DNA of 64,000 nt, taken from assembly GCF_031157835.1 (NCBI RefSeq), contig NZ_JAVIDR010000001.1:186001-250000 (forward strand), in the 5' to 3' direction. Within the stretch, counting starts at the first letter, position 1; every line of letters starts with the position of its first letter. The translations under genes were made by a program, and so were the position numbers. Source of the stretch: Acinetobacter rudis (GTDB lineage Bacteria > Pseudomonadota > Gammaproteobacteria > Pseudomonadales > Moraxellaceae). The notes below the pieces were generated by a model. The model saw only the letters and a program-made list of their open reading frames with translations. It did no database searches and was not told where the DNA came from. Positions 954 to 16,523 of the stretch are shown piece after piece.

Positions 954-1883
954 CTAATTCAAAGCTTGAACAGACCTCTGTAGACCTTGCTGAATATCCT
1001 GTACAAAATCCTCTCCATGATTAGATTTAGGTCGATTTTTTCCTTTCGAATTAGGCTGTATTTGTTCAAATTCAGAATTCTCACTCACATAAAATTCCTC
1101 CACCAAATCTAATCCCTCCTCAGCATTCACCTCAAACCGTGCATTGCCATAGCCTTGCCGTGCTACCTGATCCAAAGCAGCCTGATTAAAACCACACAAT
1201 TTACTTTTCTGATCAATCTCCTTGGCAGTTTGAATCGCCTCTTGTAAATGAATGCCTTCACGTAAAGTCAGATCCACGTAATAGACTGGGATTCGATAGC
1301 TTTGTGTCGTAGACTTACCTCTAAGCATGAGTTGAAGCGGTAAACAGGACAACAAACCATTCGATGCCGCATGGTAATAACTTAAACGTGCAGCCAAAGT
1401 GCGGATACTGTTGTAGCCTGTGGTTCTAAAGATAAATGTACCGAGTTCATCACTGTCATCCAGATTGACATGCAAACGACCATAGGGCTTACATTGTCCA
1501 CCCTGTGCCAATAGGCAGATATCAGGCGATGGACAGGGTAATTGTTCTACACCCTGTTGGGTAAGCCGTTGGCAGGTCTCACCATTACCCACACAGACAG
1601 GTCTACCCGTTTGTCGGTCAAATAAGCTGTACTCAGCACGTAAGTTCAGTTCAGGATCATTGAAGATCATGCGGACTGGTATGGTTCTGAGTTTTTGATT
1701 CGGTGCTTTGGTACGTAATTGTTCATCGAGTGGATGTTTGATCCAACCATCTTTTCCTTGAATTTGACTGGTAATGGTGAACTGGTCATCCTTTTCAGGC
1801 AGTCTCTTGCCATTCTTTTCGACCACTTTACCAATGCTGATTCGTCCGAGTATCGGTGGTGTAATGGCTAAACCTTTAATCAT
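954..1883 (-). CDS. Gp3-like recombination directionality factor / 'hydrolase or metal-binding' family protein
   Basis: This 309-aa protein resembles a family found in integrative elements and plasmids beside YqaJ and DUF932 genes. Databases label it either recombination directionality factor-like (Gp3) or 'hydrolase or metal-binding protein'. A cysteine-rich middle (CVGNGETC, then CPSPDIC and GGQCKPYGR) suggests a bound metal. The C-terminal 50 residues are polar and look disordered. A good Shine-Dalgarno (GAGG) lies 8 bases before the ATG. It is the third member of a leftward set with the YqaJ and DUF932 genes, separated from YqaJ by a terminator-like hairpin. The family name rests on recall and context; a directionality role is unproven. 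Confidence 0.55.
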   Translation of the reverse strand: MIKGLAITPPILGRISIGKVVEKNGKRLPEKDDQFTITSQIQGKDGWIKHPLDEQLRTKAPNQKLRTIPVRMIFNDPELNLRAEYSLFDRQTGRPVCVGNGETCQRLTQQGVEQLPCPSPDICLLAQGGQCKPYGRLHVNLDDSDELGTFIFRTTGYNSIRTLAARLSYYHAASNGLLSCLPLQLMLRGKSTTQSYRIPVYYVDLTLREGIHLQEAIQTAKEIDQKSKLCGFNQAALDQVARQGYGNARFEVNAEEGLDLVEEFYVSENSEFEQIQPNSKGKNRPKSNHGEDFVQDIQQGLQRSVQALN

Positions 1884-1925
1884 GGTGATTTCCTCTGTTC
1901 ATGTTTGAATTAAAATAAAGTTTGC

Positions 1926-1957
1926 ATAAAAAAATCCCATGCGCTGAGGCATGGGAT
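1926..1957 (-). terminator. Terminator-like hairpin between YqaJ gene and Gp3-like gene
   Basis: A 9-bp perfect stem (ATCCCATGC with GCATGGGAT, 6-base loop) is followed on the minus strand by a T-run. It ends the YqaJ transcript or attenuates the downstream gene. The T-run passes into TTTTTATGC, a tail shared with the hairpins at 3098 and 4720. Confidence 0.75.
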
Positions 1958-2020
1958 GTTTATGTTGGTTTGATGTTTTAATGTTGAGTGGTTAAATGTT
2001 CTGCTTAGGCTAAACTTGTT

Positions 2021-3064
2021 TCAATCGTCATTGCTATAGATGTTGAAACGCCGTGAACCTATTTTGCTTTGTGGAAATTGATTCAGATATTCAGGGTGTT
2101 GTTTCAGTAAAGCCTTACTGTCTAAGATGATCGAGTCTTTGGACTTTTTCCACGTGACGGAGCCTGCTTTAAAGGTTGCCCGTTCAGCATCCTGCATCTT
2201 GGCTTGCAGCTGGTGCTTCAGCAGATCGAATTGCTCCTGATGCTTTTCAATATGATTGCGCGCTTGAATCAATTGTTCAAACTGTTGATTGGCTTGCATA
2301 TCTTCGGATAAGTCTGTAGTACTGAGTGGCACATGTTCTGGATATAAAAGCTGTAAGGCTTTGGCTGCTGATTCACTGGCATCGGCTTCAGGTGGCATAT
2401 CCTTTTCCACACATTCCCAGAAGTAACGCTCGGCATTGACGATATGTTGAATCACGGATTCAGAACGCGTCACTTTAAAAATGCGCATTTCATGCCCACA
2501 GATCAGCACACAAATATGTGCGGCTTGTTTTCCTGTGACTGCCAATTGGTGTTGCACTTGGCAAAGCACGTATAACGGCACACCATCTCGCCAAAGCTTG
2601 GCCCCATATTCCCCTGCGGTTTTGCATTCCAGAATTTGCACCTCTGCGTTGCCCACCACGGAATAGTCTAAGTTAGCCAACATGAAATGTTTGTCTGGAT
2701 CAGGATGTTGCAGCACTGCATTCACACGTCGGACTTTATGCTGAGTGTGCATGCTGTAATATTCAGCAACCAAGGGTTCTAATTGCTTGCCCCAATACAG
2801 AGGTGCATGGCCTTCGCTTTCATCCTCAATATTTTGTTGAATCCGTCCTGTTTTGATCATCCATAGTTCTAGCATCGACATATAGGGATTAAGTCCACAA
2901 GCTGCTGCACAGTCACTACTTCCAATGCCCTTGCGTCTGACTTCTAACCATTCAGCTTGGGTCATATGTTTGGTTTCTGCTAAGCGTTTTGGCTGGATCA
3001 GTTTAGTGCGATGGACATGAATATTTGTTCTAGCTGGATTAGGTTGAATTAATGCTGAGTTCAT
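2021..3064 (-). CDS. YqaJ-family viral recombinase (lambda-exonuclease-like)
   Basis: This 347-aa protein is a YqaJ/lambda Exo-type nuclease that resects double-stranded DNA ends for phage-style recombination. The RKGIGSSD motif near residue 48, a later central acidic residue and the ECKTA motif near residue 147 fit the metal-binding active site of the PD-(D/E)XK fold. The last 100 residues form a helical, glutamine-rich tail. The ATG is preceded by GAGG. Exonucleases of this family usually work with a single-strand annealing protein; none of the Beta or RecT type is seen in the window, unless the neighbouring DUF932 protein fills that role. Confidence 0.85.
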   Translation of the reverse strand: MNSALIQPNPARTNIHVHRTKLIQPKRLAETKHMTQAEWLEVRRKGIGSSDCAAACGLNPYMSMLELWMIKTGRIQQNIEDESEGHAPLYWGKQLEPLVAEYYSMHTQHKVRRVNAVLQHPDPDKHFMLANLDYSVVGNAEVQILECKTAGEYGAKLWRDGVPLYVLCQVQHQLAVTGKQAAHICVLICGHEMRIFKVTRSESVIQHIVNAERYFWECVEKDMPPEADASESAAKALQLLYPEHVPLSTTDLSEDMQANQQFEQLIQARNHIEKHQEQFDLLKHQLQAKMQDAERATFKAGSVTWKKSKDSIILDSKALLKQHPEYLNQFPQSKIGSRRFNIYSNDD

Positions 3065-3097
3065 AGAAATTTCCTCTGATTATTAAATTTTAGGCAT

Positions 3098-3124
3098 AAA
3101 AAAAGCCACATCTGGAGATGTGGC
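3098..3124 (-). terminator. Terminator-like hairpin between DUF932 gene and YqaJ gene
   Basis: GCCACATC pairs with GATGTGGC around a 4-base loop (3105-3124), followed on the minus strand by seven T and the tail ATGCCTAAAATTT. It sits about 40 bases upstream of the YqaJ start, so YqaJ needs readthrough or its own promoter. Confidence 0.75.
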
Positions 3125-3207
3125 AAAGAGGTATTTGGATTCAAGGAGATTTTCAGGATCGTATTGATCTCATGGGATCATCTTAGTTCCCAAACCTGAA
3201 TCTAAAC

Positions 3208-4254
3208 TTAAACAATCAATCGTAATGCTTGTTCGAGTCCACGTTGCTTAAGCCCTGCGCCTGCACCGAACCAAGCGGAATCAAGACGGTGATCCTGACT
3301 CATGGCACGACGTTCGTGATCCGCAAACTCAGTGATTGAGCACAGCAAACCATAAGCCGTGTCTTTAGCTGAGCTGAGTTCTGCCCCACGACCATGCCCA
3401 TTAAACATGGTCATGACTTTGGACATGGCACGTCCATTCGGTTCAGTCTTGTTTTCAGCTTTCGTGGCTGAGTTGGCTTGTGTGGCGACATTACGATAGA
3501 ACTGAATAATGCCTTCGTCCTGCTCAATTGGACTTAAGCTGGTATTGTTAAACACGGCATCAAAATACGCTACCGCTTCGGTTTGTGTCACTTTACGTTG
3601 ACTGAGTTGCTTCATTTCATACATGTGTTCCTCCCACGCACGGACTGAAATCCCCAGTTGCTGTTTGATCTTCTGCGCATCAAACTTAGTGCTGTGTGGG
3701 ACTTTGACCACACCTGCACTTGCGTTCTGACCTTTTAAGGCAATAGCTAGAGTGTTGTTACACACCACGCGGATTGAGGTGAATTGTGCAGTGGTTGCCA
3801 ATGTACCATCGCAAGCAGTGGCTAAGAGAATATAGCCATTACTGACATCTTTACCCTTTAAAGCAGAAGTCTGCCCTGTTTTGGCTAAAGCCCAGAATTT
3901 CTTCCCTCCTTTCAGTACCCCAGCGGTTTCTAATTCAAAGCCCGATTGTTCAGTCAGGTCTTTGTAGAAATGTAGAATTTCTTTAGGTTGAACTTCCTGA
4001 TAACGTTGACTCACTACCGATAATGGCGCATGGGTATCAGATCGATAAAGAACACGCTGTTCTTCATAAGGCATGATGATGCTTTGTCCACGTTCATTTT
4101 GAGCCATATAGCTGACATCTGAAGATTCAATTCGCCAATCCATGCCTGCCTGCTGTGCCCAGACTTCAATCGGTTGGTTTTGGCTGAGTTGGTTGCCTAA
4201 GCCATGCCAAGGGGTTTGACCGACATAAGCCATTTTTTCAATTTGATGTGCCAT
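3208..4254 (-). CDS. DUF932 domain protein (phage/plasmid-like TIGR03299 type)
   Basis: This 348-aa protein matches the DUF932 family found on phages, plasmids and integrative elements. Visible hallmarks are the N-terminal region with TPWHGLG near residue 15, VLYRSDTHAPLSVVS near residue 70, a central CDGTLATTAQFTS segment, RVVCNNTL, and the C-terminal HGRGAEL and TAYGLLCSITEF stretches. Biochemical function is not established. Its repeated co-occurrence with YqaJ nucleases suggests a part in recombination or replication. Spacing to the upstream zinc-ribbon gene is about 80 bases with no hairpin, so those two may be cotranscribed. Confidence 0.85.
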   Translation of the reverse strand: MAHQIEKMAYVGQTPWHGLGNQLSQNQPIEVWAQQAGMDWRIESSDVSYMAQNERGQSIIMPYEEQRVLYRSDTHAPLSVVSQRYQEVQPKEILHFYKDLTEQSGFELETAGVLKGGKKFWALAKTGQTSALKGKDVSNGYILLATACDGTLATTAQFTSIRVVCNNTLAIALKGQNASAGVVKVPHSTKFDAQKIKQQLGISVRAWEEHMYEMKQLSQRKVTQTEAVAYFDAVFNNTSLSPIEQDEGIIQFYRNVATQANSATKAENKTEPNGRAMSKVMTMFNGHGRGAELSSAKDTAYGLLCSITEFADHERRAMSQDHRLDSAWFGAGAGLKQRGLEQALRLIV

Positions 4255-4335
4255 AGTTCTTTTTCCTATTCAATGTAAATTTTGGGTTTTGTAAGTTTTA
4301 ACGTTTGTAGGGTTGTCTGTGATGCTTTTGTACAA

Positions 4336-4692
4336 CTAAGCTCGATCTGCAAAGTGATGACCACATTCCAGACATTCATACAGAATTTGGGCTTGTGCGG
4401 TTTCTTTCAGCATAGGGTTCGGTTGCTGTTCTTGGACATAATTGAGAAAACATGCAGCACATCCGACTGCTCCGCCAATCACAGCACCGACCACATAGAC
4501 CATCGGACGTTGCCCTTTGATCAGGCGTGCACCTGAAATACCCATTGCGGCATAGTTCACGATATATTGCATCAGGCTCTGCATCGGCGGTTTAAGCAGG
4601 GTTTGACCCAATGAAGGATTGGGATTGGATAGATGCGGTTCAGCGATTTCAATCTCATCGCTGGCACACATCGGACAATAAATTCGAGGCAT
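4336..4692 (-). CDS. Small zinc-ribbon protein with central membrane segment
   Basis: This 118-aa protein is not a family I recognise. Two CxxC pairs, CPMC at residues 5-8 and CLEC near residues 107-110, would form one split zinc ribbon joining the two ends. Between them is a glycine-rich hydrophobic segment (about residues 68-86, VVGAVIGGAVGCAACFL) that could span or dip into the membrane. The ATG has a GGAG Shine-Dalgarno 9 bases upstream. It precedes the DUF932 gene on the same strand and has a terminator-like hairpin directly upstream. Confidence 0.65.
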   Translation of the reverse strand: MPRIYCPMCASDEIEIAEPHLSNPNPSLGQTLLKPPMQSLMQYIVNYAAMGISGARLIKGQRPMVYVVGAVIGGAVGCAACFLNYVQEQQPNPMLKETAQAQILYECLECGHHFADRA

Positions 4693-4719
4693 ATCGATAA
4701 CTCCATAAAATTTCAGGCA

Positions 4720-4754
4720 TAAAAAAAACCATGCCCTTAAAGGGCATGGTTTTT
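4720..4754 (-). terminator. Bidirectional terminator downstream of small lipoprotein gene
   Basis: ACCATGCCC pairs with GGGCATGGT (4728-4750) around a 5-base loop, with T-runs on both strands. On the minus strand eight T are followed by ATGCCTGAAATTTT, nearly the same tail as at 3098 and 1926, although the stem sequences differ. Confidence 0.8.
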
Positions 4755-4811
4755 GATGAGCTTATCTTTGATTCAGCACTTAGAAACTGAGATACAGTTC
4801 AAGCTTCAGCA

Positions 4812-5183
4812 TTAATTGAACTGATAACTTACACTACCTTTGGTAGTTTCTATATCCACTTGTACGACGTTAGAGAAACTACATTTATCCAGTCGAAATC
4901 GAGCTATTTGCCCCATCTGAAAATGTAGTGGGAAATTAAATCTTTTATCAGATCCCATATAGGTACATTGTCCGTTGTTCACAGTGACATTGGTCACTTC
5001 TATCGGTTCTGCTGTATTTGAACGGATCGTAATCACTGCAGGACGGTTCCATGTCCCATAAACCATTTCATTCAATTCGACCGAAAAAGTATCTGGTTCC
5101 AGCCCTGAACTGCATCCTTGTAAAGCCAATGCAGATAACGAGAGTAATGCGGTAAAGCCCAAAGTTTTCATTAAGTTGTTCAT
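4812..5183 (-). CDS. Small lipoprotein of unknown function
   Basis: This 123-aa protein has a clear lipoprotein signal: a short basic start, a hydrophobic core and the lipobox ALQGC with the acylated Cys at about residue 24. The mature part is about 100 residues and predicted mostly beta, with two further cysteines that could form a disulfide. It is preceded by an AGGAG Shine-Dalgarno. The position inside a mobile element, next to a second lipoprotein, suggests cargo acting at the envelope, for example phage exclusion; that is inference only. Confidence 0.7.
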   Translation of the reverse strand: MNNLMKTLGFTALLSLSALALQGCSSGLEPDTFSVELNEMVYGTWNRPAVITIRSNTAEPIEVTNVTVNNGQCTYMGSDKRFNFPLHFQMGQIARFRLDKCSFSNVVQVDIETTKGSVSYQFN

Positions 5184-5334
5184 TCTGGATTGCTCCTAAA
5201 TATTGTATTCAGATGTAGAGATATGAATGCTTTCCCTCAATTAGCGTTGAGGAGAGAATGCTCTTACATCGTGGTAATATGTATTTGAAATTTCTTTATT
5301 TTTAAAAAGTACTCAACAGCAGATTTGGTCACTG

Positions 5335-6474
5335 TCATCCATCCCCCAGATAATCAAATTTTTCAGGTTCTACAGGGACGACTTTCTTGGGATATTTCTG
5401 CAAGAGGGTTTCTGGGGAAAGATAATTTTCTAGACCAAATTTGAAATTCCATACAGGCGCATGTGAGACATCTTTAAATGGCATGGTTTTCAGTTGTTCT
5501 ATTGCGTTATCAACAAAGTGCCATTCCAGTTCAACTGCTGATCTTTGCTTAAAGCTTAGTGGTTTGAATACAGGCGAAACATACATCACGTCTATAATAT
5601 TGTTGCGACGCCGATCTAGATTGCCCGGTTTATTGAAATAGAAAAAGATGCCATTTGGGCTCAGTTGATTATTTTTGAAATTGAATACATACCCTAATTT
5701 GATTTGTCCAAAATATTCAGCGATTTGTTTGGCTAATTCAGGTTGAACTTTTATCAGTACTTCTGATTCCAGAAAAACTCTAGACCCAATATCTTGTCCA
5801 TATCGAACCGTCATCTGTTCATGATCTGCATCATAAGTATAGGACGCATAAGAGGAGTTCAACCTAATACCTCGAACACTTCGGTTTAACGCTTGTTCCA
5901 GTAATGTCAGATCATAGTCCTTAACCTTGCTTTCCGCATTTTGCTTTTCCCGTTGCACTCGTGCTTCATAGTCCTGTGTTTTTTCAAATTCCTGCTTCGG
6001 CTCAATGTGAGGGGCTTTCATATAACGGATATGATTGATCGCCAAATTATTGCTATATTTGAAATATTCATCGTTGGTCAAATCAATCAACAAATAATTG
6101 TCTTGAGGATCATGATTTTGATTACCGATCACAAAAATTTGATCTGGACCTAGATTGAGCTGTGGGTGAATCAGATCATAATTTTCATAAAGTGAAGAAT
6201 CTCCGATCCGCTCTATTTCCCAACTGGTTGGGTATCGAATTTTTTGATGTTCGGGAATATCCGAAAGTTCTAATTCTTGCAGACTTTGATCAGGGCTGAT
6301 CTGCGCCTTCGGCACAATTACGGTTGGTTTTTCGGTGATATTCTGCAAAGCTTCACTGCTTTCTGTGGTTTGACCTTCTACAGCGGGATCACTTTTAGGC
6401 TGATCTTTACTGGAACAGGCATTCAGTCCCATCAATAAAATACATAAAGACAGACACTTTAATTTAGTTGTCAT
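5335..6474 (-). CDS. Large lipoprotein of unknown function
   Basis: This 379-aa protein begins with a lipoprotein signal ending in GLNAC (acylated Cys near residue 20), then a polar serine- and lysine-rich linker to about residue 75. The rest looks like one globular domain of mixed structure. The segment KTQDYEARVQREKQNAESKV around residue 165 looks helical and coiled-coil-like. I see no known family motif. It lies upstream of the smaller lipoprotein on the same strand, about 150 bases away. Both may be element cargo exported to the outer membrane. Confidence 0.65.
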   Translation of the reverse strand: MTTKLKCLSLCILLMGLNACSSKDQPKSDPAVEGQTTESSEALQNITEKPTVIVPKAQISPDQSLQELELSDIPEHQKIRYPTSWEIERIGDSSLYENYDLIHPQLNLGPDQIFVIGNQNHDPQDNYLLIDLTNDEYFKYSNNLAINHIRYMKAPHIEPKQEFEKTQDYEARVQREKQNAESKVKDYDLTLLEQALNRSVRGIRLNSSYASYTYDADHEQMTVRYGQDIGSRVFLESEVLIKVQPELAKQIAEYFGQIKLGYVFNFKNNQLSPNGIFFYFNKPGNLDRRRNNIIDVMYVSPVFKPLSFKQRSAVELEWHFVDNAIEQLKTMPFKDVSHAPVWNFKFGLENYLSPETLLQKYPKKVVPVEPEKFDYLGDG

Positions 6475-6703
6475 CGTGCATCATTCTCTTTCATTGTCCA
6501 TAAGCACTTCTCAGCAATCGCCAAGCTGGACTTATGGTGATTTGATGTTCTTCTTGGAGTTCTGCCTTTTCTTCTGATGTGACTGTTCCGTAGAATGAGT
6601 AGATCTACAAATCAGCGATAAAATGATTCAGATGTGCAGGCCAACAAAGGAACAAGCGCCTTCATTGAGCGTTCCCCAAATGCTAAATTTTTAAAATATC
6701 GGT
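6475..6703. other. Intergenic, with hairpin behind the Ash-like frame
   Basis: No gene is seen. An inverted repeat at 6649-6675 (GGAAC with GTTCC, inner GC pairs and a small bulge) lies just past the stop of the Ash-like frame and could end that transcript. Another weak inverted repeat (CCATAAG with CTTATGG) lies near 6498-6536. Confidence 0.4.
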
Positions 6704-6997
6704 TTATCTGACGTCGACAACGCCATAGAGAGTACTGGGGTAAAAAAGAGAATGTGTATTTAAGAATGTAGTACGCATGGCGGACTCCTTGTGTGTATTA
6801 AAGAGCTCTACCAAATTACTGTCAAATAATGGTGGCAGAACGAGAGAGGGTTGACAGACTGACACACAAGAATCAGCACGCACAAGGCGTCCCTCCCTCG
6901 CCCTACCGCAACGGAGGAGGAACGAACGAGTTCGCCACCAAAAAATTACTCTTTTGATGTGCTTGTGTGTAAATGGTCTGTCAAAACCAACTGACAA
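6704..6997 (-). CDS. Ash/Icd-like phage reading frame overlapping C4-like RNA
   Basis: The full frame is 97 aa from a TTG start and carries features I associate with Ash-family or Icd-like phage proteins: SVGFDRP at the start, WRTRSFLLRCGRAREG in the middle and LFNTHKESAMRTTFLN near the end. Much of the middle is the translated shadow of the structured RNA at 6851-6984, so the protein conservation may reflect the RNA. A strong internal start exists: an ATG at 6778 with AAGGAG nine bases before it would give a 24-aa peptide ending at the same stop. In phage P1 the C4 RNA blocks such a site. Which product is made is unresolved. Confidence 0.45.
   Translation of the reverse strand: MSVGFDRPFTHKHIKRVIFWWRTRSFLLRCGRAREGRLVRADSCVSVCQPSLVLPPLFDSNLVELFNTHKESAMRTTFLNTHSLFYPSTLYGVVDVR
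6851..6984 (-). ncRNA. Candidate C4/CI-type antisense immunity RNA
   Basis: On the minus strand the ends of this segment pair to form a basal stem: TTGACAGAC and ACACACAAG (6984-6962) with CTTGTGTGT and GTCTGTCAA (6870-6851). Inside, CGTTCCTCC (6924-6916) pairs with GGGAGGGACG (6897-6888). Between the stems, TGGCGAACTCGTT (6937-6925) is complementary at 11 of 13 positions to AAGGAGTCCGCCA (6790-6778), the ribosome binding site of the ATG at 6778. A second segment, CCTTGTG (6887-6881), pairs perfectly with CACAAGG at 6793-6787. A promoter lies just upstream. This is the architecture of P1 C4 and P4 CI RNAs, which are cut from the leader of the transcript they repress. Confidence 0.75.
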
Positions 6998-7014
6998 TGT
7001 AGGTCAGCAAGTCA

Positions 7015-7043
7015 AGGATAATTGGCAGGATTTAAAGTGTCAA
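7015..7043 (-). promoter_or_regulatory. Sigma70 promoter for the C4-like RNA transcript
   Basis: Reading the minus strand, TTGACA (7043-7038) is followed by a 17-base spacer and TATCCT (7020-7015). The predicted start falls near 7007, about 20 bases before the basal stem of the structured RNA. Confidence 0.7.
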
Positions 7044-7155
7044 CGTTGTATTTTTACTGGAACAATCAATTGAGTGTTTTCGCTATGCTTCTGATTCAGA
7101 ATGACTATTGAATAATCAACATCATCTAAACTTCAACTGAAGCTATAATTTCAAC

Positions 7156-7184
7156 CTGAATTAAACAGCACACTCAATTATAAT
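7156..7184 (+). promoter_or_regulatory. Possible promoter for small gene at 7215
   Basis: CTGAAT (7156-7161), a 17-base spacer and a perfect TATAAT (7179-7184) sit upstream of the 74-aa gene. It diverges from the promoter of the C4-like transcript, so the two share a roughly 110-base control region. Confidence 0.5.
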
Positions 7185-7214
7185 GGTGCTTAGTGTTATT
7201 AAAGGAATCTGTGC

Positions 7215-7439
7215 ATGCAGCGATTGAAGTGTATTGGAGGCCCACTGTATGGGCTCGAATATTCACATTCGCAGGATAAGTTTAAATTCTTTGATAAACA
7301 AAAAGGCAAAGATACCCTTTATTACAAACAAGTCTTAGACTTTACCCCACCTCAGTCATTCTTCATTGCAGAATCAATTTCTCCTGATTTTGCTTATGCA
7401 CTGGCATTACAACTGATGGGGCAAAAATCTCATTTATAG
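7215..7439 (+). CDS. Small protein of unknown function
   Basis: This 74-aa protein starts at an ATG with AAGGA nine bases upstream. The N-terminus contains CIGGPLYGLEY, a pattern seen in some small phage or element proteins, but I cannot name a family. It has no signal peptide or membrane segment. It is the only rightward gene between the C4-like locus and alpA and has a plausible promoter, which argues it is real. Confidence 0.5.
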   Translation: MQRLKCIGGPLYGLEYSHSQDKFKFFDKQKGKDTLYYKQVLDFTPPQSFFIAESISPDFAYALALQLMGQKSHL

Positions 7440-7453
7440 CTTTGAATTTTATC

Positions 7454-7696
7454 TCAATTTGTGATCATTCTACGTTCACTGATCTTTTGAGCAATCCATG
7501 CATTGACCTCATGTGCAATCCAACCGACTCGATTGCTGGTTAAATTGATCTGCTGAGGAAAACTGGCATCATAATACTTGGATTTAGGATCTAGCAGTGA
7601 ATAAATGGTGGCACGACTCAATCCGGTGATTTCAACCAATTGCTTGATGTTTAAGATTTGGTTGATCTGAAATGTTTGTGAATTTAGCGCATTCAT
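7454..7696 (-). CDS. AlpA-family transcriptional regulator
   Basis: This 80-aa protein is an AlpA-type winged-helix DNA-binding regulator, common in P4-like satellites and CP4-type cryptic prophages, where such proteins control integrase or excision genes. The diagnostic stretch is LVEITGLSRATIYSLLD, followed by FPQQINLTSNRVGWIAHEVNAW near the C-terminus. The frame extends upstream to a GTG at 7753, but the ATG at 7696 has a GGAG Shine-Dalgarno eight bases before it and gives the usual family length. An inverted repeat about 90 bases upstream may be its operator. Confidence 0.85.
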   Translation of the reverse strand: MNALNSQTFQINQILNIKQLVEITGLSRATIYSLLDPKSKYYDASFPQQINLTSNRVGWIAHEVNAWIAQKISERRMITN

Positions 7697-7786
7697 CTGA
7701 TGAACTCCGATGTGGTATGAAGGCGTGCGTTCTGCACATATCATGTCCATCACCGTAAAAAAATAGGTACGCCTCGAAAGCCCACC

Positions 7787-7806
7787 GTATCCATTGGATT
7801 GGATAC
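7787..7806. promoter_or_regulatory. Inverted repeat upstream of alpA
   Basis: GTATCCA and TGGATAC form a perfect 7-bp inverted repeat with a 6-base spacer, in the leader or promoter zone of alpA. It could be an operator for AlpA or another element regulator. Confidence 0.45.
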
Positions 7807-7846
7807 AGGAGACGCTCTATTTCGATTTACTTTAATGGGATTAGAA

Positions 7847-8806
7847 TCACCATTTCTTGCCATTAAAGATTTTAAAGCCACGTGTTGCGATGCAAATCTT
7901 ATTCATCTGCTCATTTACACTCGTCACCGTATCTGGCAAGTCACCAAGATCATCCAATGGGTTTTTAGGCTCAGGAAAGTTAAAAAGCCCATCTGGGTCA
8001 AATCCGAATGGATTGCCATTTGAGTGCTGTGTTTCTTCATCTGGAATTTGCAATAAAATACCCATGCCATAAGTGGCATCCTGCCACAGTCTTAATAGGT
8101 CAACTGAATAGTCAATATCATTGCAATAAAAGACTTTTTGAAAGGTCAGGTAGAATCTAATCACGTAACAGTTTCGGGTACTGTCACGAATTAAGTGATA
8201 ATAGCTAAATATAACTTGTGCACGGAACCAAGGTAAGGATGTTAGCTTCTTTTCAAATACCCGAAATGATTGAATCACTTGATCGACTGATTGCAACAGT
8301 TCAGTACCCACTGGATAACTCAGATAGAATTTTAAATCAGGCGCATCTACACTCAATTTGCTGACTTCTGAATAAAGCTCACGCAAATGATCAACTCTCT
8401 TCTCGTATTGCTCATTACTTTGATGTAAAGCCTCATGAAAACCCGTCGTTGCAAATAACTGTTTCAGTTTATTTAATACATGCTCCGCCAGCCATTTTGC
8501 AGTATGTTTGGCAGTTGGATTAAAATAATGCTGACGTGAGTCGAATTGCTGTAAGACGGTAAAATAGGCGTTTCTGAATTGTGTCACCCAGAAGCTGCAA
8601 TCTGAATCTCGATGATGAAACATTAGCTCATTCCACTCTCGAAAATACACCAGCAAAACTTGAGCCGTTTGTTCAATGATTTTCTGAATATGTTCATCAT
8701 GAGTCATGGGCGGGATGGGTGAACCAAATCGCACTTGAGTAAAGAAGTTGTGTATATCTTGCTCTAAACGTGGTGCAGTCTGATGTTCAATGTGTGTAAT
8801 GTCCAT
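7847..8806 (-). CDS. Element protein of unknown function, 319 aa
   Basis: I do not recognise this protein. It is predicted soluble and largely helical, with many aromatic residues and no signal peptide. The open frame reaches upstream to 8896, overlapping the next gene, but the ATG at 8806 has AGGA eight bases upstream and avoids the overlap, so I place the start there. It lies 58 bases downstream of the Gp2-like gene on the same strand and is probably cotranscribed with it, which hints at a part in element replication or maintenance. Confidence 0.6.
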   Translation of the reverse strand: MDITHIEHQTAPRLEQDIHNFFTQVRFGSPIPPMTHDEHIQKIIEQTAQVLLVYFREWNELMFHHRDSDCSFWVTQFRNAYFTVLQQFDSRQHYFNPTAKHTAKWLAEHVLNKLKQLFATTGFHEALHQSNEQYEKRVDHLRELYSEVSKLSVDAPDLKFYLSYPVGTELLQSVDQVIQSFRVFEKKLTSLPWFRAQVIFSYYHLIRDSTRNCYVIRFYLTFQKVFYCNDIDYSVDLLRLWQDATYGMGILLQIPDEETQHSNGNPFGFDPDGLFNFPEPKNPLDDLGDLPDTVTSVNEQMNKICIATRGFKIFNGKKW

Positions 8807-8864
8807 GGAAAGTCCTATGAAGTGAAATTTTTCATAGAACTGTCCACTCCATATTTTTTTACAG

Positions 8865-9860
8865 TTAATTGACGATTTGCTCATCCAATAAGTCATCTAC
8901 ATCTTGTTCAGACCAAATTCCTGCTTCTGCTGATATTGGGTGATTGATCTTATACTTACGCCCATGCTCGTGGTAAATTCCTTTAAAGAAAGTTCTTTTA
9001 CCCAATGGCTTAATCAACATCCGCTGTAAATACTTTTCAGGCTGAGTCAGATAACTGGCTACATTCAAAGCATTCTGCATTTCTAAGGGCTGATTGCGAT
9101 GGATCATGCCTATCCCCAATAAACCTCGATCAGCGTATTGTTTTTTCTTTTCAGGGGTATTGTTATTGAGTCCGTAACCTAAATCCTGAGTTATCTCATG
9201 CCACTTCTGAATCACTTCATTAGCTAAGTACCAGTCCTGACAACGCTCAGAACCGTTGTAGATCAGCATCAGATGCGCATGGTAGCCTTTTGTTGCACCC
9301 TGCTCTAATGCTAACCCATAACCTAATAAATGCTTAAAACAGCCATTCTTGTCTTTCAATAGATGACGAATTGATTCAATATGGTTATAGAAATCCTGCA
9401 CCGTAATATTCGGCATAAGCTCTTTCAAATACCCCAAATCAACACGCACAACCAAAATCTTATAATGATCGTTAAGAATCCTCTGCACATATTCTAAAAA
9501 GCGGTCTTGATTCTCTTCCTCTTGCTGTTTAAACAAACGAATTTCAGCCAAGTGCTGTGACCTATGACTTCGTAATAGATTTCGAAGATTGGATATTTCT
9601 ATAGATGATAACTGTGTCAGATATTCTTCAATCCCTAAATCACCTCGATGAGCTTCAACTAATTGCACCACGTCTTTAAACGTAGCAAGCAAAGTACAGT
9701 ATTCAATACCCTCTTGGTCAAAAACCTGAAATGCAGGAATCAATACACAAAGGTGAGTAATAAAGTCTGTCTGGTTAAAACCATCATTTAGTTGGTAATC
9801 AACAAAGTTATTCACTGCGGTCATTACAGCAGCTTGATGAGAGAGATCGTATTGCAACAT
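8865..9860 (-). CDS. Inovirus Gp2 / YagK-YfjJ family replication-type protein
   Basis: This 331-aa protein matches the YagK/YfjJ C-terminal domain family, related to inovirus Gp2 and rolling-circle-type initiators. Visible features are the YKILVVRVDLGYLKEL strand around residue 135, the HUH-like GYHAHLMLIYNGSE around residue 195, and a conserved NVASYLTQPEKYLQ near residue 270. Relatives occur in CP4-57-type elements beside alpA, as here. A candidate catalytic tyrosine is not assigned. The ATG has AAGGA upstream, and that Shine-Dalgarno lies in the arm of a perfect inverted repeat. Confidence 0.75.
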   Translation of the reverse strand: MLQYDLSHQAAVMTAVNNFVDYQLNDGFNQTDFITHLCVLIPAFQVFDQEGIEYCTLLATFKDVVQLVEAHRGDLGIEEYLTQLSSIEISNLRNLLRSHRSQHLAEIRLFKQQEEENQDRFLEYVQRILNDHYKILVVRVDLGYLKELMPNITVQDFYNHIESIRHLLKDKNGCFKHLLGYGLALEQGATKGYHAHLMLIYNGSERCQDWYLANEVIQKWHEITQDLGYGLNNNTPEKKKQYADRGLLGIGMIHRNQPLEMQNALNVASYLTQPEKYLQRMLIKPLGKRTFFKGIYHEHGRKYKINHPISAEAGIWSEQDVDDLLDEQIVN

Positions 9861-9869
9861 GTCGATATT

Positions 9870-9898
9870 CCTTAGTTATGTTTGATGCATAACTAAGG
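9870..9898. promoter_or_regulatory. Perfect inverted repeat burying the Gp2-like gene's ribosome binding site
   Basis: CCTTAGTTAT and ATAACTAAGG form a 10-bp perfect inverted repeat with a 9-base loop. On the minus-strand mRNA the distal arm contains the AAGG of the Shine-Dalgarno of the gene starting at 9860. It may be an operator, an RNA hairpin limiting translation, or both. Confidence 0.6.
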
Positions 9899-10120
9899 AG
9901 GAAGAGTTATTTATTATGTATACGTGATCTACTTTGTAGATATCTATGATCTGTATGAGTGAATAGATTTATAATTAGTTAATTAATAATATTATTTACC
10001 GACTTAGTCTGCAGGCTAAGGGTAACAAAACTGACCTGTATATAAGATAGTCTACTTTTCGCTCTCACTGCATTCATGCATTTTTACTCAAATATCCATT
10101 TACGAGAGTTAAGGCAGAAA

Positions 10121-11824
10121 TTAGCTTTTATTGTTATTTTTAAGATTGAACAGCTCATACCGCTTCTGATCCTCTAAGCTTAAATTCAACTCTTTGCAGT
10201 TAAGCGCATACTCTACAGGATCAACTGATATTTGCTCAAACTCAAGCATATGAAAGGCATCTTGTTCTTTTTTCTGCTTTATCTCTTCAGCATCATAACG
10301 ACAAAAATAAACTCGGTCACAGAGGTCCGAATTTTGTAATGGTAATACTGCATGATCAAAGTAAACTTTTGAATTCTCCAACTTGCGTACCTCTTTAATG
10401 AAAGGCTTCATTTCACTACGGAATAATGCTTGGCAAATGGCAAATAAGATTTTTGCTCTTGATTCTTCAACGAGCTGCTTTTTCAAAGACATTTGGGTTT
10501 TCTGGCTATTTCCTTTATTAGATTTAACATTTGTATTGACTTCAGGTAATTTAATTTTAGTTAAATACTGATCAAACCGTCCTATCAAAGACATTGGCAT
10601 TGGCGAGCTTAGCCATATTTCTGCCTGGCCTAAATTGGAAATCATTAACTGAATAGAATAGTTGAGTAAAAAATCAATTCGTGCAACATTCGCTTGATCC
10701 GTATTCAATAATGATTTCCCCATACGAAAGCGGGGTATCACAAGTTGTATATACTGACCAAAATTCTCTTCAGATTTGCTCACAAAATTGAATTCCTCTC
10801 GAATCGCATTACCCAGTTTACTTTGAATAGTTTGATCAATAACTTCATCGAATACTTTGGCAAGTTCATACACAATACTATTGCAAGAAGATGATGCTTT
10901 TTTTGCTTGATCCAGTGCAGCCAGATATTGAATAAAATTAAATGCTTGTTCTACGATAGATGTATATTCATTGGGGAATTTCAAAAAGTAATAATGTCCA
11001 AATATCCGCTTTTCACCCCAAATGGCAGCTGAAAGATTTAAGCAATACACAGGAGCAACTGAATTAAGTAAATTATTGTTCAATGTTCCATCTAGTTTGG
11101 AGCGAAGAATTCCCATATCAAATAAGTCAGCAATTGCTCGTTGCAATGCATTACGGCTCATTCCAGTCCATTTAGATAATTCATACGTTCCAACATCAAA
11201 AACGATTCCATTAGCGTCACTAGACAGCACCATGTTCACTAAAACAAGCCACTGCTTATAATTGAGTTCCATCAACTCGTCAGCATTTTTTTGCTTATGG
11301 CTAATTTTGACATCAAACATTAAGCCAAATAAAATTTCCAAAAAATCATATCGTGGATAACTAGCGACAAGCTCAGAAGCAGTTTTTTTAAACCTTATTT
11401 TTTTTATACTTTGTTTAGCTGATTTATTCTCTTTTAACCCTACTGCGGGTTGATTGCCCTCTTTTGCTTTATCCAAAGCAATAATCAACTGATCAGATGG
11501 TTTCCAGCTCCATCGATAATCTACTTGTCTCGGTAGTAGTAGTACTTTATTCAACTTTATAACTTTTTCTTCTAGCTGCTCGCATAATCCTTTTTCAACC
11601 AATACATCTAATGATTTTTTTAATGTTAACCAATTCACCTTCACTTCTTTAGCCAAAGCTTTTAGGTCCGATATTGAAATTCTACGACCTCCATAACAGA
11701 TCAATAATCTTAGAAAAATAATTCGATCAATCGGCGATAAAGTAATTTCCATATGCCTTAGCATAAGTATAGATATTGCCCTTAGTTCCCATTGTCTATT
11801 TAGCAATTTTTCGGAATTTTTCAT
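10121..11824 (-). CDS. Putative winged-helix DNA-binding protein, 567 aa
   Basis: I cannot name the family. Two segments look like helix-turn-helix units: residues about 50-85 (RRISISDLKALAKEVKVNW then LKKSLDVLVEKGL) and about 205-240 (YELSKWTGMSRNALQRAIAD then LFDMGILRS). Both have the shape of a winged helix choosing between small sets of sites. The remainder is helical, with polar linkers near residues 140 and 430. There is no clear Shine-Dalgarno before the ATG at 11824. It is divergent from the coiled-coil gene at 11964 across an A+T-rich region containing an inverted repeat. Confidence 0.6.
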   Translation of the reverse strand: MKNSEKLLNRQWELRAISILMLRHMEITLSPIDRIIFLRLLICYGGRRISISDLKALAKEVKVNWLTLKKSLDVLVEKGLCEQLEEKVIKLNKVLLLPRQVDYRWSWKPSDQLIIALDKAKEGNQPAVGLKENKSAKQSIKKIRFKKTASELVASYPRYDFLEILFGLMFDVKISHKQKNADELMELNYKQWLVLVNMVLSSDANGIVFDVGTYELSKWTGMSRNALQRAIADLFDMGILRSKLDGTLNNNLLNSVAPVYCLNLSAAIWGEKRIFGHYYFLKFPNEYTSIVEQAFNFIQYLAALDQAKKASSSCNSIVYELAKVFDEVIDQTIQSKLGNAIREEFNFVSKSEENFGQYIQLVIPRFRMGKSLLNTDQANVARIDFLLNYSIQLMISNLGQAEIWLSSPMPMSLIGRFDQYLTKIKLPEVNTNVKSNKGNSQKTQMSLKKQLVEESRAKILFAICQALFRSEMKPFIKEVRKLENSKVYFDHAVLPLQNSDLCDRVYFCRYDAEEIKQKKEQDAFHMLEFEQISVDPVEYALNCKELNLSLEDQKRYELFNLKNNNKS

Positions 11825-11900
11825 AAAAACAACTATTATTGATTAATAACCATTATTTTAATTTAATATATAATGTTTATTAACATAAATAATTTAATAT

Positions 11901-11933
11901 CGATTTAACCATCATTTTTATGATTTAAAATCG
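11901..11933. promoter_or_regulatory. Inverted repeat in divergent control region
   Basis: CGATTT and AAATCG form outer arms and ATCAT and ATGAT inner arms around TTTT, between the divergent genes at 11824 and 11964. The motif AACCATTATTTT near 11847 recurs as AACCATCATTTT at 11907. These are candidate operators. Confidence 0.45.
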
Positions 11934-11963
11934 TTTAATTAGATATAACAATTGGAGCTAAAA

Positions 11964-12602
11964 ATGGGACGCCCTCAAATTTACTTAAAAGATTGGTGTT
12001 TAGAAGACAGCCTACTTAAAGCTGAATTTCTGAAAAAGGAATCGGAAAATCCGAGAGGTCTTGTTGTTATAACATCCCATCAAGGCTACTTACCTAATAT
12101 CAATATCTATCCTCATTTTCAGTCAGGCAATTTTGACATCGGAAGATTGAGTAATGGTTTATCAATCCAAGTCACTCCCAGCTGTTATGAAAAATTAAAA
12201 GCCAAATTCCGCACTTTTAAGAAAAATGACAACGACAAAAATAAAGTTAAAAAGCAGTATCATTTTGAGAAAGAACTATCAGCTCGAATTCAATATCTCA
12301 AAAATGAGAATGGCTGGGCAAAAGAAGAAATAGTCATTGAACATGTAATTAATGCATATACTAATTCCATGGCTTACAACAAATCTAAAGCAAAAGTAGA
12401 TACAAAAATAATCAAACTTCAAGTTCTTAATGAAGAAATCAATAAAAATCTTTTAGAAATCCAACAGCTCAAAACTGAAGTTTTTGAATTAAAACAAAAA
12501 CTTTTAAAAGAATCATCCGCAAAAGAACATTATGAAAATCTTTGCAAAGAACATGGTATTGATGGAGAAAACTTTCAACTCACAGAAAACTCTCCATCTT
12601 AA
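11964..12602 (+). CDS. Coiled-coil protein of unknown function, 212 aa
   Basis: This protein begins MGRPQIYLKDW and has a lysine-rich centre (about residues 85-110) followed by a long C-terminal coiled coil from about residue 145 to 190 with heptad-like leucine and isoleucine spacing. An in-frame TTG at 11952 exists, but the GGAG at 11955 fits the ATG at 11964. The layout, a basic region followed by a coiled coil and divergent from a DNA-binding protein, would suit a partition or regulatory partner; that is speculation. It is the last clear gene of the accessory region. Confidence 0.6.
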   Translation: MGRPQIYLKDWCLEDSLLKAEFLKKESENPRGLVVITSHQGYLPNINIYPHFQSGNFDIGRLSNGLSIQVTPSCYEKLKAKFRTFKKNDNDKNKVKKQYHFEKELSARIQYLKNENGWAKEEIVIEHVINAYTNSMAYNKSKAKVDTKIIKLQVLNEEINKNLLEIQQLKTEVFELKQKLLKESSAKEHYENLCKEHGIDGENFQLTENSPS

Positions 12603-12942
12603 CTAATCTCTTTGTTAATGATCTCTAGGAGTAGATCTGGGAGTTTCCTACATGGTTAATGATCATTTGAATTGAAGGCAAATTTCTTATGTAAAACATC
12701 CGTAACATTTTAAGCCTTAAGACCCAAATCATCGAATAGCTTGAATTGAAAAAGATTAAAGTAGCATAAGAAACAGCCTGTCATAGACAGGTTGTTTCTT
12801 TCATATTAAATTAGCGCATGGCATTTCACATAAAATGTTTTTTGTTAATTTCAGAAACATGAAATAGTCTAGAGTAATACAAAAAGTAGCAACCTAAAAA
12901 TTTAGGTTAGGAGAGTTACTTTTTTCATAACATGGAGTTGTT
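12603..12942. other. Intergenic with terminator and palindrome
   Basis: A 13-bp stem (12770-12782 with 12786-12798, one G-U pair) followed by TTT ends the coiled-coil gene's transcript. Further right, AACCTAAA and TTTAGGTT form an inverted repeat at 12891-12908, about 40 bases before the AraC gene. Otherwise nothing is seen. Confidence 0.6.
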
Positions 12943-12945
12943 GTG

Positions 12946-13953
12946 ATGTTGCAAGACAGTTTAATTCAAGATTGTCGTGGAGAAATTATTCCTCAGGCAC
13001 ATAAAAATATCTCAATGGATTGGGATGAAATTAAGAATTGGTCTGATCAAGTCTATATGCCCTACAATGCACAACCTGTAGGTAAGGGACTATTGCCAAA
13101 TTCAAGTATGCACTCTGTATCTGTGGCAGATATGATTGTGACTCGTTTTAAATATGGCATCCCCGTTTATCTTGATCAATGGAATCAAGATAAAGGTCAT
13201 ATTATTCTTCTGACTACTATAGAGGGGCATGGAAAACATGCAATTACTCCCAACAACTGGCAGACAACCAGCGTCGGTGAATCTTTTATTGTAGATTGTA
13301 GCCAAACAGATGATTATGCTGTGCACTTCGATCCACAGCATTTACAGTTGAATTTGACGATCCCACATGATGTCTTAGCCCGTCTGGTACTTGCAAATTT
13401 TGGACATGAAGCCCCTATTCACATGTGGCAGTTTAAAACTTTTTTCGGGGGAAGTGATTCAAGCTGGCTATCCTTGCTGAACTATCTAAGTAAAAGTATT
13501 TCGGAAATCCCATTAGCACAATTAAAAAAGAAAGCAGGTGAACATTTACAACAAATGATTGGTCTGCATATTCTCAATGAATGGTCAATTCGTGCAAATA
13601 TAGATTTAAATCAAAAAATATGGATCACACCTAAATTTATCGAACGCGCCGAGCAATATATGCGTGAAAATTTACGTGATAGTCCTACGATTGCTGAAAT
13701 TGCACAAGCGATTGGAATCAGTATTCGAAGCTTGTCCAGTGGTTTTAAAAAATATCGACAGTCTAGCCCAGCTCAAGTTATGCGAAATATGCGTATGACT
13801 TTAGTAAGACAAGAATTATTAGAAGCATCACCAGAACAGACAGTAACTGAAATTGCTTTGGCTTGTGGTTATCTCAATTTGGGTGATTTTGCACGTAACT
13901 ATTATCAGATATACAATGAATTACCCTCACAGACATTAAAAAATAGATATTAA
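12946..13953 (+). CDS. AraC-family transcriptional regulator
   Basis: This 335-aa regulator has an AraC_binding_2-type N-terminal sensing domain (about residues 40-215) and a C-terminal double helix-turn-helix from about residue 230. The second motif, TVTEIALACGYLNLGDFARNY, is the classic AraC signature. ATG 12946 has GGAG eight bases upstream; a GTG one codon earlier is the alternative. It stands just upstream of, and in the same direction as, a serine hydrolase and an outer-membrane channel gene and most likely activates them in response to an aromatic or ester compound. Confidence 0.9.
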   Translation: MLQDSLIQDCRGEIIPQAHKNISMDWDEIKNWSDQVYMPYNAQPVGKGLLPNSSMHSVSVADMIVTRFKYGIPVYLDQWNQDKGHIILLTTIEGHGKHAITPNNWQTTSVGESFIVDCSQTDDYAVHFDPQHLQLNLTIPHDVLARLVLANFGHEAPIHMWQFKTFFGGSDSSWLSLLNYLSKSISEIPLAQLKKKAGEHLQQMIGLHILNEWSIRANIDLNQKIWITPKFIERAEQYMRENLRDSPTIAEIAQAIGISIRSLSSGFKKYRQSSPAQVMRNMRMTLVRQELLEASPEQTVTEIALACGYLNLGDFARNYYQIYNELPSQTLKNRY

Positions 13954-14088
13954 TTATCAAATAATTGCCGTTTTTCGATAAAGCTTGCCTATTTGCGGTA
14001 GAACCGCTGAAACATTCCTTTTTAGACTAAAGATGTTGTCATATGACATCAATTAAGTAATAACTCAAATGGAATGGAGTGTTTCTTC

Positions 14089-15270
14089 ATGAAACAGCAA
14101 TTACAGCAAATTCTCGATCCTATCTTAGATCAGGTTGTTAACAGCATTCATCCTGTTGCAGGAGTTGTAGCAGGGGTTACAAATAGAGATGAAACCCTGT
14201 ATTTAAATCATGCAGGTGAGCGGGATATTTCAACACATACGGCAATGACGGATGACAGTGTATTCGCAATTTTTTCAACAACGAAAGCAATTACAACGAC
14301 TGTGGCTTTGCAACAATACGAAAAAGGACTACTTGATTTAGACGCCCCTGCTAAAGAGTATATTCCTGAAATCGGTCAACTTCAGGTTCTTCATGGCTTT
14401 GATACTCAAGGAAAACCAATTCTTCAAGCCCCGAAAATAGATGTAACTACTCGAATGCTGTTATTACATACAGCTGGTATGGGTTATGATTTTTTTAATC
14501 CTGAGTATCAGAAGCTAACTTCTGAACATGGTTATCCAAGTGTCATCACTTCATCAAAAGCATCTTTAAAAACGCCTTTATTGTTTGAACCAGGAACACA
14601 ATGGGAATACGGTTCAAACATCGATTGGGCTGGATTAGTCACAGAAAAAGTTGGGGGCAAACGCCTTGGTCAACTCATGCAGGAACAAATTTTTAACCCT
14701 TTAGAAATGAATGACACTGCATTTACCTTAACATCCTCTATGCTTGAACGTCGTGCGAGTATGCACCATCGTCAAGCAGATGGCAGCCTAATTGCCGACC
14801 CTGATTTCATATTGCCACAAGAGCCAGAAGTACATATGGGTGGGCATGGTCTTTATTCTACTGTCTGTGATTATTTAAAATTTATTCGTCTTTGGCTAAA
14901 TCGTGGCGAAGTCAACGGTCACCGTTTACTACAAGAAAGCACTCTTGAACTGGCTCTTAATAATGGCTTGGCAGATATTGCCATGAAAAATTTACCAGGC
15001 TCGATTCCTACTTTGTCCAATGACGTCAATATCTATCCTGAAGCTGAAAAAGGCTGGACACTTGGTTTTATGGTCAATGAACAAGTGACTGACTCAGGAC
15101 GTCCAGCAGGTACTATCGGCTGGTGTGGTTTAGCAAATCTCTATTATTGGATTGATATCAAAAATAACATCGGCGGGTATTGGGCAACTCAGACACTCCC
15201 ATTTGTTGATCCTACAGCCTATAACGGATTCCTTTCTTTTGAGAAAGCGGTCAATTCTCTAACCCATTAA
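14089..15270 (+). CDS. Beta-lactamase-fold serine hydrolase / esterase
   Basis: This 393-aa protein belongs to the class C beta-lactamase-related (EstB-type) family of esterases. The SxxK motif is STTK with the nucleophile Ser63 and Lys66. The second motif is around WEYGSNIDWAG near residue 180, where the tyrosine would be the general base. A late HxG-like element is less clear. No signal peptide is seen, so it is likely cytoplasmic. An ATG at 14074 is possible, but the GGAG at 14076 fits the ATG at 14089. With the AraC regulator and the porin-like gene it forms an apparent ester-utilisation unit. Confidence 0.85.
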   Translation: MKQQLQQILDPILDQVVNSIHPVAGVVAGVTNRDETLYLNHAGERDISTHTAMTDDSVFAIFSTTKAITTTVALQQYEKGLLDLDAPAKEYIPEIGQLQVLHGFDTQGKPILQAPKIDVTTRMLLLHTAGMGYDFFNPEYQKLTSEHGYPSVITSSKASLKTPLLFEPGTQWEYGSNIDWAGLVTEKVGGKRLGQLMQEQIFNPLEMNDTAFTLTSSMLERRASMHHRQADGSLIADPDFILPQEPEVHMGGHGLYSTVCDYLKFIRLWLNRGEVNGHRLLQESTLELALNNGLADIAMKNLPGSIPTLSNDVNIYPEAEKGWTLGFMVNEQVTDSGRPAGTIGWCGLANLYYWIDIKNNIGGYWATQTLPFVDPTAYNGFLSFEKAVNSLTH

Positions 15271-15373
15271 AAATTCAAATTATTCCTAAGCCAAAATCTG
15301 GCTTAGGTCATCATGCTAATTGAATTTACTCAGTCAATAACATCATAATTTTGGTGTCCGACAAGGAACTGTT

Positions 15374-16237: not shown

Positions 16238-16247
16238 TATCAAAAAT

Positions 16248-16270
16248 GATACTAGCTTTTTGCTAGTATC
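16248..16270 (+). terminator. Hairpin after MetA-like gene
   Basis: GATACTAGC pairs with GCTAGTATC around five T. There is no T-run after the stem, so termination strength is uncertain. Confidence 0.5.
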
Positions 16271-16512: not shown

Positions 16513-16523
16513 AATTCAAAATT

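What the first reader, a model, noticed from the sequence alone, without database searches (positions are those of the whole stretch)
6704..7043. C4/CI-type antisense immunity RNA locus in an Acinetobacter accessory region
Seen directly on the minus strand: a TTGACA-17-TATCCT promoter, a basal stem about 134 nt long overall, an inner 9-bp stem, and two segments complementary to one ribosome binding site on the same transcript (11 of 13 positions, and 7 of 7). Known: P1 C4 RNA and P4 CI RNA are cut from a leader and silence the downstream Icd/Ash-type gene this way. Inference: this element has an RNA-based immunity switch, and the 97-aa 'Ash' frame may mainly be the RNA's shadow, with the true product a 24-aa peptide.
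Basis: partly seen in the sequence, partly recalled or inferred. Interest (0 to 1): 0.85.

Follow-up and report, generated by a model that had tools for sequence, protein, structure and literature searches.

The report
C4 antisense RNA in Acinetobacter element
A mobile DNA element in an Acinetobacter chromosome carries a small antisense RNA of the known phage C4 family that matches its own leader and the translation start just downstream, and comparison within the genus shows that these matching sites change together.

Summary
Window 6913-6828 (-) matches Rfam C4 antisense RNA (RF01695) at 56.1 bits, cut-off 45. The order is promoter, leader sites a1+b1, C4, then a2+b2, where b2 overlaps the Shine-Dalgarno sequence of a 24-codon ORF.

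In 232 distinct C4s of the genus no leader held only a foreign a1 class. The loop b' matched its own b1 and b2 far better than those of other loci (0 of 2000 permutations each). The same element in genome G019 has b', b1 and b2 changed together.

The 97-aa frame is not Ash by profile and is broken in 2 of the 3 closest relatives; the short ORF is kept, its peptide poorly. Processing, silencing and immunity are inferred, not shown.

C4 RNAs in Acinetobacter were published in 2016, so this is a new member of a known kind. Less expected are C4s in relatives that match only their own leader, and tandem C4 arrays.

The parts
7015..7043 (-). sigma-70-like promoter TTGACA-17-TATCCT
   Evidence: pattern at the same position in 180 of 206 relatives with an a1 site and enough leader, shuffled mean 6.1
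6990..7008 (-). 5' leader hairpin with loop CUACAUU, as in 'Region 1' of A. baumannii Group 1 sRNAs
   Evidence: loop motif from PMC5320573 section 16
6976..6984 (-). a1: leader site complementary to a'
6962..6970 (-). b1: leader site complementary to C4 loop b'
6828..6913 (-). C4 antisense RNA (RF01695 match); predicted mature RNA 6907-6830, 78 nt, 5' GGU, 3' ACCA
   Evidence: 56.1 bits, cut-off 45; structure covariation; ends inferred from the GGW rule; 74-87 nt between such ends in 207 of 232 relatives
6862..6870 (-). b': P3 loop of C4, pairs with b1 and b2
6851..6859 (-). a': segment of the C4 multiloop, pairs with a1 and a2
6819..6825 (-). a2: first part of the downstream target
6788..6796 (-). 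b2: second part of the target, overlapping Shine-Dalgarno AAGGAG (6790-6785)
6704..6778 (-). 24-codon ORF just downstream of b2
5335..6474 (-). lipoprotein-like gene (by eye, no family over cut-off), first larger gene downstream
954..5183 (-). co-directional element genes: small lipoprotein-like (by eye), zinc-ribbon-like (weak matches only), DUF932, YqaJ/RecE-like exonuclease, Gp3-like recombination directionality factor
7454..7753 (-). AlpA-like regulator upstream of the C4 locus

Best explanation
This is a C4-type antisense control locus at the head of a mobile-element operon. One promoter makes a precursor. Its C4 part is cut out (inferred: RNase P, about 78 nt) and pairs through a' and b' with a2 and with the ribosome binding site b2 of a 24-codon ORF, blocking its translation (inferred from complementarity and coordinated change). 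Loss of that translation would keep the genes behind it low, among them an exonuclease and a recombination directionality factor (inferred, by analogy with P1 and P4). A second copy of the target, a1b1, lies in the leader. In cis it can pair with a'b' and compete with the C4 fold; bound by C4 in trans it would let the nascent C4 fold, a likely self-reinforcing switch (inferred). The outcome would be upkeep of the integrated state and exclusion of elements with the same a/b code.
For: Rfam match 56.1 bits, cut-off 45. C4 structure on 39 C4s that I picked: 96.0% of cells paired, 17 of 27 pairs with changes on both sides, 0 of 500 shuffles as high, slid versions 45-51%. Of 230 loci in eight a' classes, 189 hold the exact partner of their own class in the leader, 41 none, 0 only a foreign one. 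b' against own b1: 72 loops, mean run 7.56, others 3.90; against own b2 in loci with a2: 49 loops, 8.06 and 4.88; 0 of 2000 permutations each. Relatives L058 and L059 differ from the window in a1, a' and a2 together. G019 has the same element with b1, b' and b2 changed together. Own leaders pair with a' and b' in the MFE of 136 of 201 precursors; leaders from a non-cognate locus in 2 of 206.
Against: No expression, processing or phenotype data for this strain. The first larger gene starts about 230 bases after the short ORF and any effect on it is untested. 38 of 207 relatives with an a1 site lack a2, so silencing of a cis ribosome binding site is not what all members do. Specificity is not absolute: own b1 was the best of all sites by run in 46 of 72 loops and by duplex energy in 27 of 72; own b2 in 31 and 18 of 49; the window loop still pairs with the G019 b1 at -10.0 kcal/mol. 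For the window itself the locked and C4 folds are within about 1.2 kcal/mol on four of five precursor ends tried; on the fifth, which reaches above the promoter, C4 wins by 4.7. Two loci with the window's own b loop (L246, L247) lack the element genes. No integrase was identified near the window element, so it may be defective.
Confidence: 0.82

Rival explanations
1. The 97-aa frame (6997-6704) is a real Ash/Icd-like protein and the RNA resemblance is secondary.
For: The frame is open across C4 in the window and in 18 other complete loci of 153, L060 among them.
Against: No Pfam hit up to E 1 and no PHROG hit up to 0.01. Closed before C4 in 134 of 153. L058 and L059 have TAA in it exactly where a' differs together with a1 and a2. 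Base pairs of C4 covary.
Confidence: 0.04
2. The RNA acts mainly in trans on host mRNAs, as PMC5320573 thinks more likely for A. baumannii Group 1 sRNAs.
For: PMC5320573 (section 16 and passages) argues this from loop variability. Many relatives lack a cis RBS match.
Against: In the window and in all 153 of 232 loci called complete the target lies directly downstream with both a2 and b2.
Confidence: 0.08
3. A transcription-termination switch as in P4: pairing with a1b1 and a2b2 ends transcription, and translation of the ORF is not the main output.
For: The order a1-b1-C4-a2-b2 resembles P4 seqA-CI-seqC as summarised in a passage of PMC4825925. Some relatives with another leader type have, by eye, a terminator-like hairpin with a T-run after b1 (sequences).
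Against: The one terminator-like site found in 6400-7800 lies before a1, not after b1, and one is expected by chance.
Confidence: 0.3
4. A decayed remnant without function.
For: No integrase identified nearby; the only C4 in its genome.
Against: All four pairing sites are intact and relatives change them in step.
Confidence: 0.12

Closest known systems
Rfam C4 antisense RNA (RF01695); C4 of phages P1 and P7
   Same: Three-stem structure, a' and b' segments, a two-part target that overlaps a ribosome binding site; a target copy upstream of C4, as the motif name c4-a1b1 in PMC2864571 suggests (the meaning of that name is recalled)
   Different: The ORF behind it has 24 codons and precedes lipoprotein-like, DUF932, exonuclease and RDF genes; none of the 17 window proteins scanned was called an antirepressor
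A. baumannii AB5075 Group 1 sRNAs (21 members, PMC5320573)
   Same: Region 1 hairpin with CUACAUU loop, C4 in Regions 2 and 3, GGW start
   Different: In the section and passages I saw, no cis target is described and phage or host mRNAs are proposed; here leader and ORF sites are identified and tested by covariation
P4 CI RNA (seqA, seqC)
   Same: One RNA complementary to a site upstream and a site downstream on the same transcript
   Different: Termination not tested; in a scan of 6500-7200 up to E 1 only C4 matched
Ash / Icd-like proteins
   Same: The 97-aa frame overlaps the same stretch
   Different: No profile match

Membership tests
C4 antisense RNA (RF01695) | covariance-model score over the curated cut-off | tested here: met
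   56.1 against 45 bits, model 1-87 of 87
C4 antisense RNA (RF01695) | three stems P1, P2, P3 with compensatory changes | tested here: met
   39 sequences, structure taken from the Rfam match
C4 antisense RNA (RF01695) | a' and b' complementary to a target that includes a ribosome binding site | tested here: met
C4 antisense RNA (RF01695) | processing by RNase P to about 77 +/- 1 nt (as stated in PMC5320573) | not testable with these tools
   sequence fits: GGU at 6907, ACCA end at 6830, 78 nt; needs a northern blot
C4 antisense RNA (RF01695) | silences an antirepressor operon (P1/P7) | tested here: inconclusive
   other genes lie downstream; no expression data
A. baumannii Group 1 sRNAs | Region 1 hairpin with loop CACAUU or CUACAUU before C4 | tested here: met
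   7008-6990 against the definition
P4 CI RNA | premature transcription termination on pairing | not testable with these tools
   only the arrangement of sites was compared
Ash protein family (Pfam Phage_ASH, name recalled) | profile match of the 97-aa frame | tested here: not met
   0 families up to E 1 in Pfam, 0 up to 0.01 in PHROGs

The most novel reading that the evidence does not exclude
In Acinetobacter, C4 RNAs are a genus-wide set of largely orthogonal, self-recognising RNA switches. Working members are held first to their own leader; the ribosome-binding-site target is optional, and leader-only members and tandem C4 arrays have become compact multi-specificity immunity cassettes against incoming elements.
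Probability: 0.17. Interest if true: 0.75.

Novelty: new member of a known kind. Interest (0 to 1): 0.42.

Why it matters
C4-like RNAs were reported as abundant in A. baumannii in 2016 with targets unknown. The covariation here gives, for most loci of this sample, a concrete cis target and a code (a class plus b loop) from which one could predict which elements exclude each other. It also sets apart a class without an RBS target whose job is open. The window and G019 alleles are a ready natural pair for a specificity-swap test.

Tried and rejected
Ash protein: rejected. P2 hairpin as a second anti-RBS segment: present in the window, not supported across loci. Arrays as a memory of other elements: 25 loci without an own a1 site gave 18 distinct loops, 9 of them in arrays. 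Of the 9 array loops one fitted a b1 site elsewhere (10 nt, p 0.005) and another a b2 site (8 nt, p 0.040); two single-copy loops fitted a b1 site at p 0.02 or less; no correction for many tests: not supported. Leader-only loops against RBS sites of other loci: 5 of 34 with 8 nt or more, shuffled mean 1.6, maximum 4: weak. Selection for different codes within a genome: identical loops in 4 of 810 same-genome pairs and 25 of 2430 between four genomes; complete loci 0 of 65 and 8 of 211: same direction, not convincing, and orthologous loci may explain it. Phage records: the RDF protein found no match. Plasmid records by DNA with 5335-9860: 18 records, none covering 80%; the best listed match only the C4 part.

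Limits of the sample. The genus searches list only the best matches and I fetched part of them; 254 nhmmer hits became 232 after dropping identical -140/+120 stretches. At least two parses look wrong: L135 and L284 (one of 81). Loci are related by descent and the permutations do not remove that; sets thinned to loops at least 4 mismatches apart (40 and 24 loops) still gave 0 of 2000. The a'/a1 table is circular, since a1 was found by its match to a'; that is not. ORF lengths were cut at about 106 codons by the stretch used; one search gives the full lengths.

Papers: PMC5320573 section 16 and passages; PMC2864571, PMC12197685, PMC4825925, PMC8628076, PMC11472050 and PMC12802169 passages only; all others only as search listings. 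None of those listings pointed to a covariation study of Acinetobacter C4 targets; most subscription papers are not in the library.

Full report
What was checked. The window was read on the minus strand. Rfam places a C4 antisense RNA at 6913-6828 with 56.1 bits, cut-off 45, E 4e-8 for the whole window. The promoter, the 134-nt stem, the 9-bp stem and the match to the ribosome binding site are there. In 5000 dinucleotide shuffles a1 and b1 of this strength came together once, a2 and b2 never. The genus rests on the nearest DNA: all 18 plasmid records and all 24 phage-collection records with similar DNA are named Acinetobacter, the 24 being contigs of one project.

Anatomy, 5' to 3'. Promoter 7043-7015; hairpin 7008-6990; a1 6984-6976; b1 6970-6962; C4 with mature ends predicted at 6907 and 6830; in it b' 6870-6862 (loop P3) and a' 6859-6851; a2 6825-6819; b2 6796-6788; Shine-Dalgarno 6790-6785; ORF 6778-6704, 24 codons.

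Relatives. In the genus sample 145 of 175 genomes have a C4 over the cut-off, several 20 or more; G141 has 26, the window's genome one. In the order sample 61 of 390 genomes have one over the cut-off. The 229 loci held gave 232 distinct C4s, the window's included.

Site a. Of the 230 loci in eight a' classes, 189 have the exact 7-mer partner of their own class in the leader (9 of these hold a second class too), 41 have none of the eight, none has only a foreign one; the 12 CTGCGAA and 2 CCGCGAA loci are among the 41, though 5-base partners are present in all 14 (circular). For a2 the own class was found in 93 of 108 loci with CTGTCAA (8 only another class, 7 none), 61 of 88 with CTGCTAA (5 and 22), 0 of 12 with CTGCGAA (7 and 5), 11 of 11 with CGACCAA, 3 of 3 with CTGCCAA, 3 of 3 with CGGCCAA, 0 of 3 with CCGTCAA and 0 of 2 with CCGCGAA.

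Site b. Longest run with own b1 7.56, with others' 3.90 (72 loops); thinned set 7.22 and 3.76 (40 loops). With b2 in loci that have a2: 8.06 and 4.88 (49 loops); thinned 7.88 and 4.65 (24 loops). All 0 of 2000 permutations. In loci without a2 there is no fit to b2: 4.60 and 4.59, 994 of 2000 (42 loops). Both a2 and b2 are present in 153 of 232, neither in 56, a2 alone in 19, b2 alone in 4. Of 207 loci with an a1 site 38 lack a2; in these b1 still fits (26 loops, 6.92 against 3.67, 0 of 2000). In four genomes read in full (81 C4s) the own leader was the best or equal best of that genome for 58 of 65 loops that have one (20 of 21, 9 of 11, 17 of 20, 12 of 13). In 8 loci from four other genera of the order, a1 and a2 runs of 7 were found in 8 of 8, b1 runs of 8 or more in 4 and b2 runs of 8 or more in 6, without a shuffled control.

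Two natural comparisons. L058 and L059 (93% and 90% identical to the window over the aligned part) carry CTGCTAA in a' and TTAGCAG in a1 and a2, where the window has CTGTCAA and TTGACAG. In genome G019 the same element lies beside the same genes: the AraC, beta-lactamase-fold, Rep-like, Gp2-like and AlpA proteins are 99-100% identical, and 6283-16629 is 98.6% identical in DNA. Identity is 92-100% in 7001-7950, falls to 54% in 6851-6950, is 82-100% in 6301-6850, and the DNA beyond is diverged (37-88% in 5901-6300; 77.6% over 1089-6095). So the change is not a lone patch: one flank is near-identical, the other diverges. Sites a1, a' and a2 are equal in both; b', b1 and b2 are all of another code. 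Loop-to-b2 energies are -15.3 and -12.3 kcal/mol for the own pairs and -7.8 and -7.5 crossed; for b1 -13.6 and -11.0 own, -10.0 and -2.9 crossed.

Structure. C4 pairs covary in 39 sequences. The precursor has competing folds. Over 201 distinct precursors the leader sites pair with a' and b' in the MFE of 136, the C4 fold wins in 64, one is other; with the leader of a non-cognate locus 2 of 206 lock, 4 pair at a or b only, 194 fold as C4. For the window both folds are within about 1.2 kcal/mol on four precursor ends, and C4 wins by 4.7 on a fifth. With a1 and b1 blocked, as by a bound C4, the C4 core forms. A helix between leader and 5' strand of P1 shows some specificity (80 strands, -14.23 against -12.85 kcal/mol, 0 of 2000); relatedness may explain part of it.

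The protein question. The 97-aa frame has no Pfam or PHROG match. The frame is closed before C4 in 134 of 153 complete loci and open in 19. The ORF after b2 has 10-42 codons in 134 of 153, 52 in one, 88-187 in 18. The window peptide resembles those of L059 and L060, while L058 ends differently.

Element. Downstream on the same strand lie two lipoprotein-like genes, a zinc-ribbon-like gene, DUF932, a YqaJ/RecE-like exonuclease and a Gp3-like recombination directionality factor. I compared 19 neighbourhoods. Nine were taken for their likeness to the window locus: all six genes in 3 of 9 (L231, L233, L236), DUF932 and the small lipoprotein in 9 of 9, exonuclease and directionality factor in 8 of 9. 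The ten other C4 sites have none of the six, although two of them (L246, L247) carry the window's b loop. A tyrosine integrase lies about 6 kb from the C4 locus in L233. No integrase was identified beside the window element, but only ORFs of 90 aa or more in 40 kb were listed, and not all were profile-scanned. By protein, DUF932 relatives occur on plasmids of Acinetobacter, Psychrobacter and others, in the four records opened beside exonuclease or Gp2-like genes. None of this proves that C4 controls these genes.

Known work. PMC5320573 reported 21 C4-like Group 1 sRNAs in A. baumannii AB5075, with read coverage that suggests cutting at GGW; the authors proposed phage targets or, more likely in their view, bacterial transcripts. 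PMC2864571 lists c4 and c4-a1b1 motifs. The P4 comparison rests on a passage in PMC4825925; P1 details beyond the passages are recalled. The finding is a well-supported new member of a known kind.

Noticed in passing
L048 1500-1760 (G141:C1:232520-232775); also L003, L012, L071: Three C4 units head to tail with different loops, just before a complete C4 locus. The junction pattern occurs in 6 of 175 genus genomes. The second loop in L003 differs from that in L012, L013 and L071.
   Followed up: partly
L036, L040-L043, L045, L046, L049-L053 and others: C4 loci that match their own leader but not the downstream ribosome binding site. Anti-Shine-Dalgarno words occur in 2 of 34 distinct leader-only loops and 20 of 41 complete ones.
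   Followed up: partly
L097, L122, L130, L136 and others printed: A second leader type with, by eye, a terminator-like hairpin after b1, and target ORFs of 88-187 codons.
   Followed up: no
L178, L208: C4 locus whose target ORF has 110 codons and a signal-peptide-like start.
   Followed up: no
L147, L148, L149 (A. baumannii records): C4-like loci between ordinary genes, upstream of a TetR/AcrR regulator, no phage genes annotated in the stretches shown.
   Followed up: no
L251 (NZ_CP068198.1) about 9700-9975: DNA 73% like the window C4 locus, followed by DUF932 and exonuclease genes on an A. johnsonii plasmid record.
   Followed up: no
window 58521-58708: Aar sRNA (RF02375), 116 bits.
   Followed up: no
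window 41321-41406 and 43531-43616: Two tRNA-Leu (taa) genes about 2.2 kb apart with the same Rfam score.
   Followed up: no
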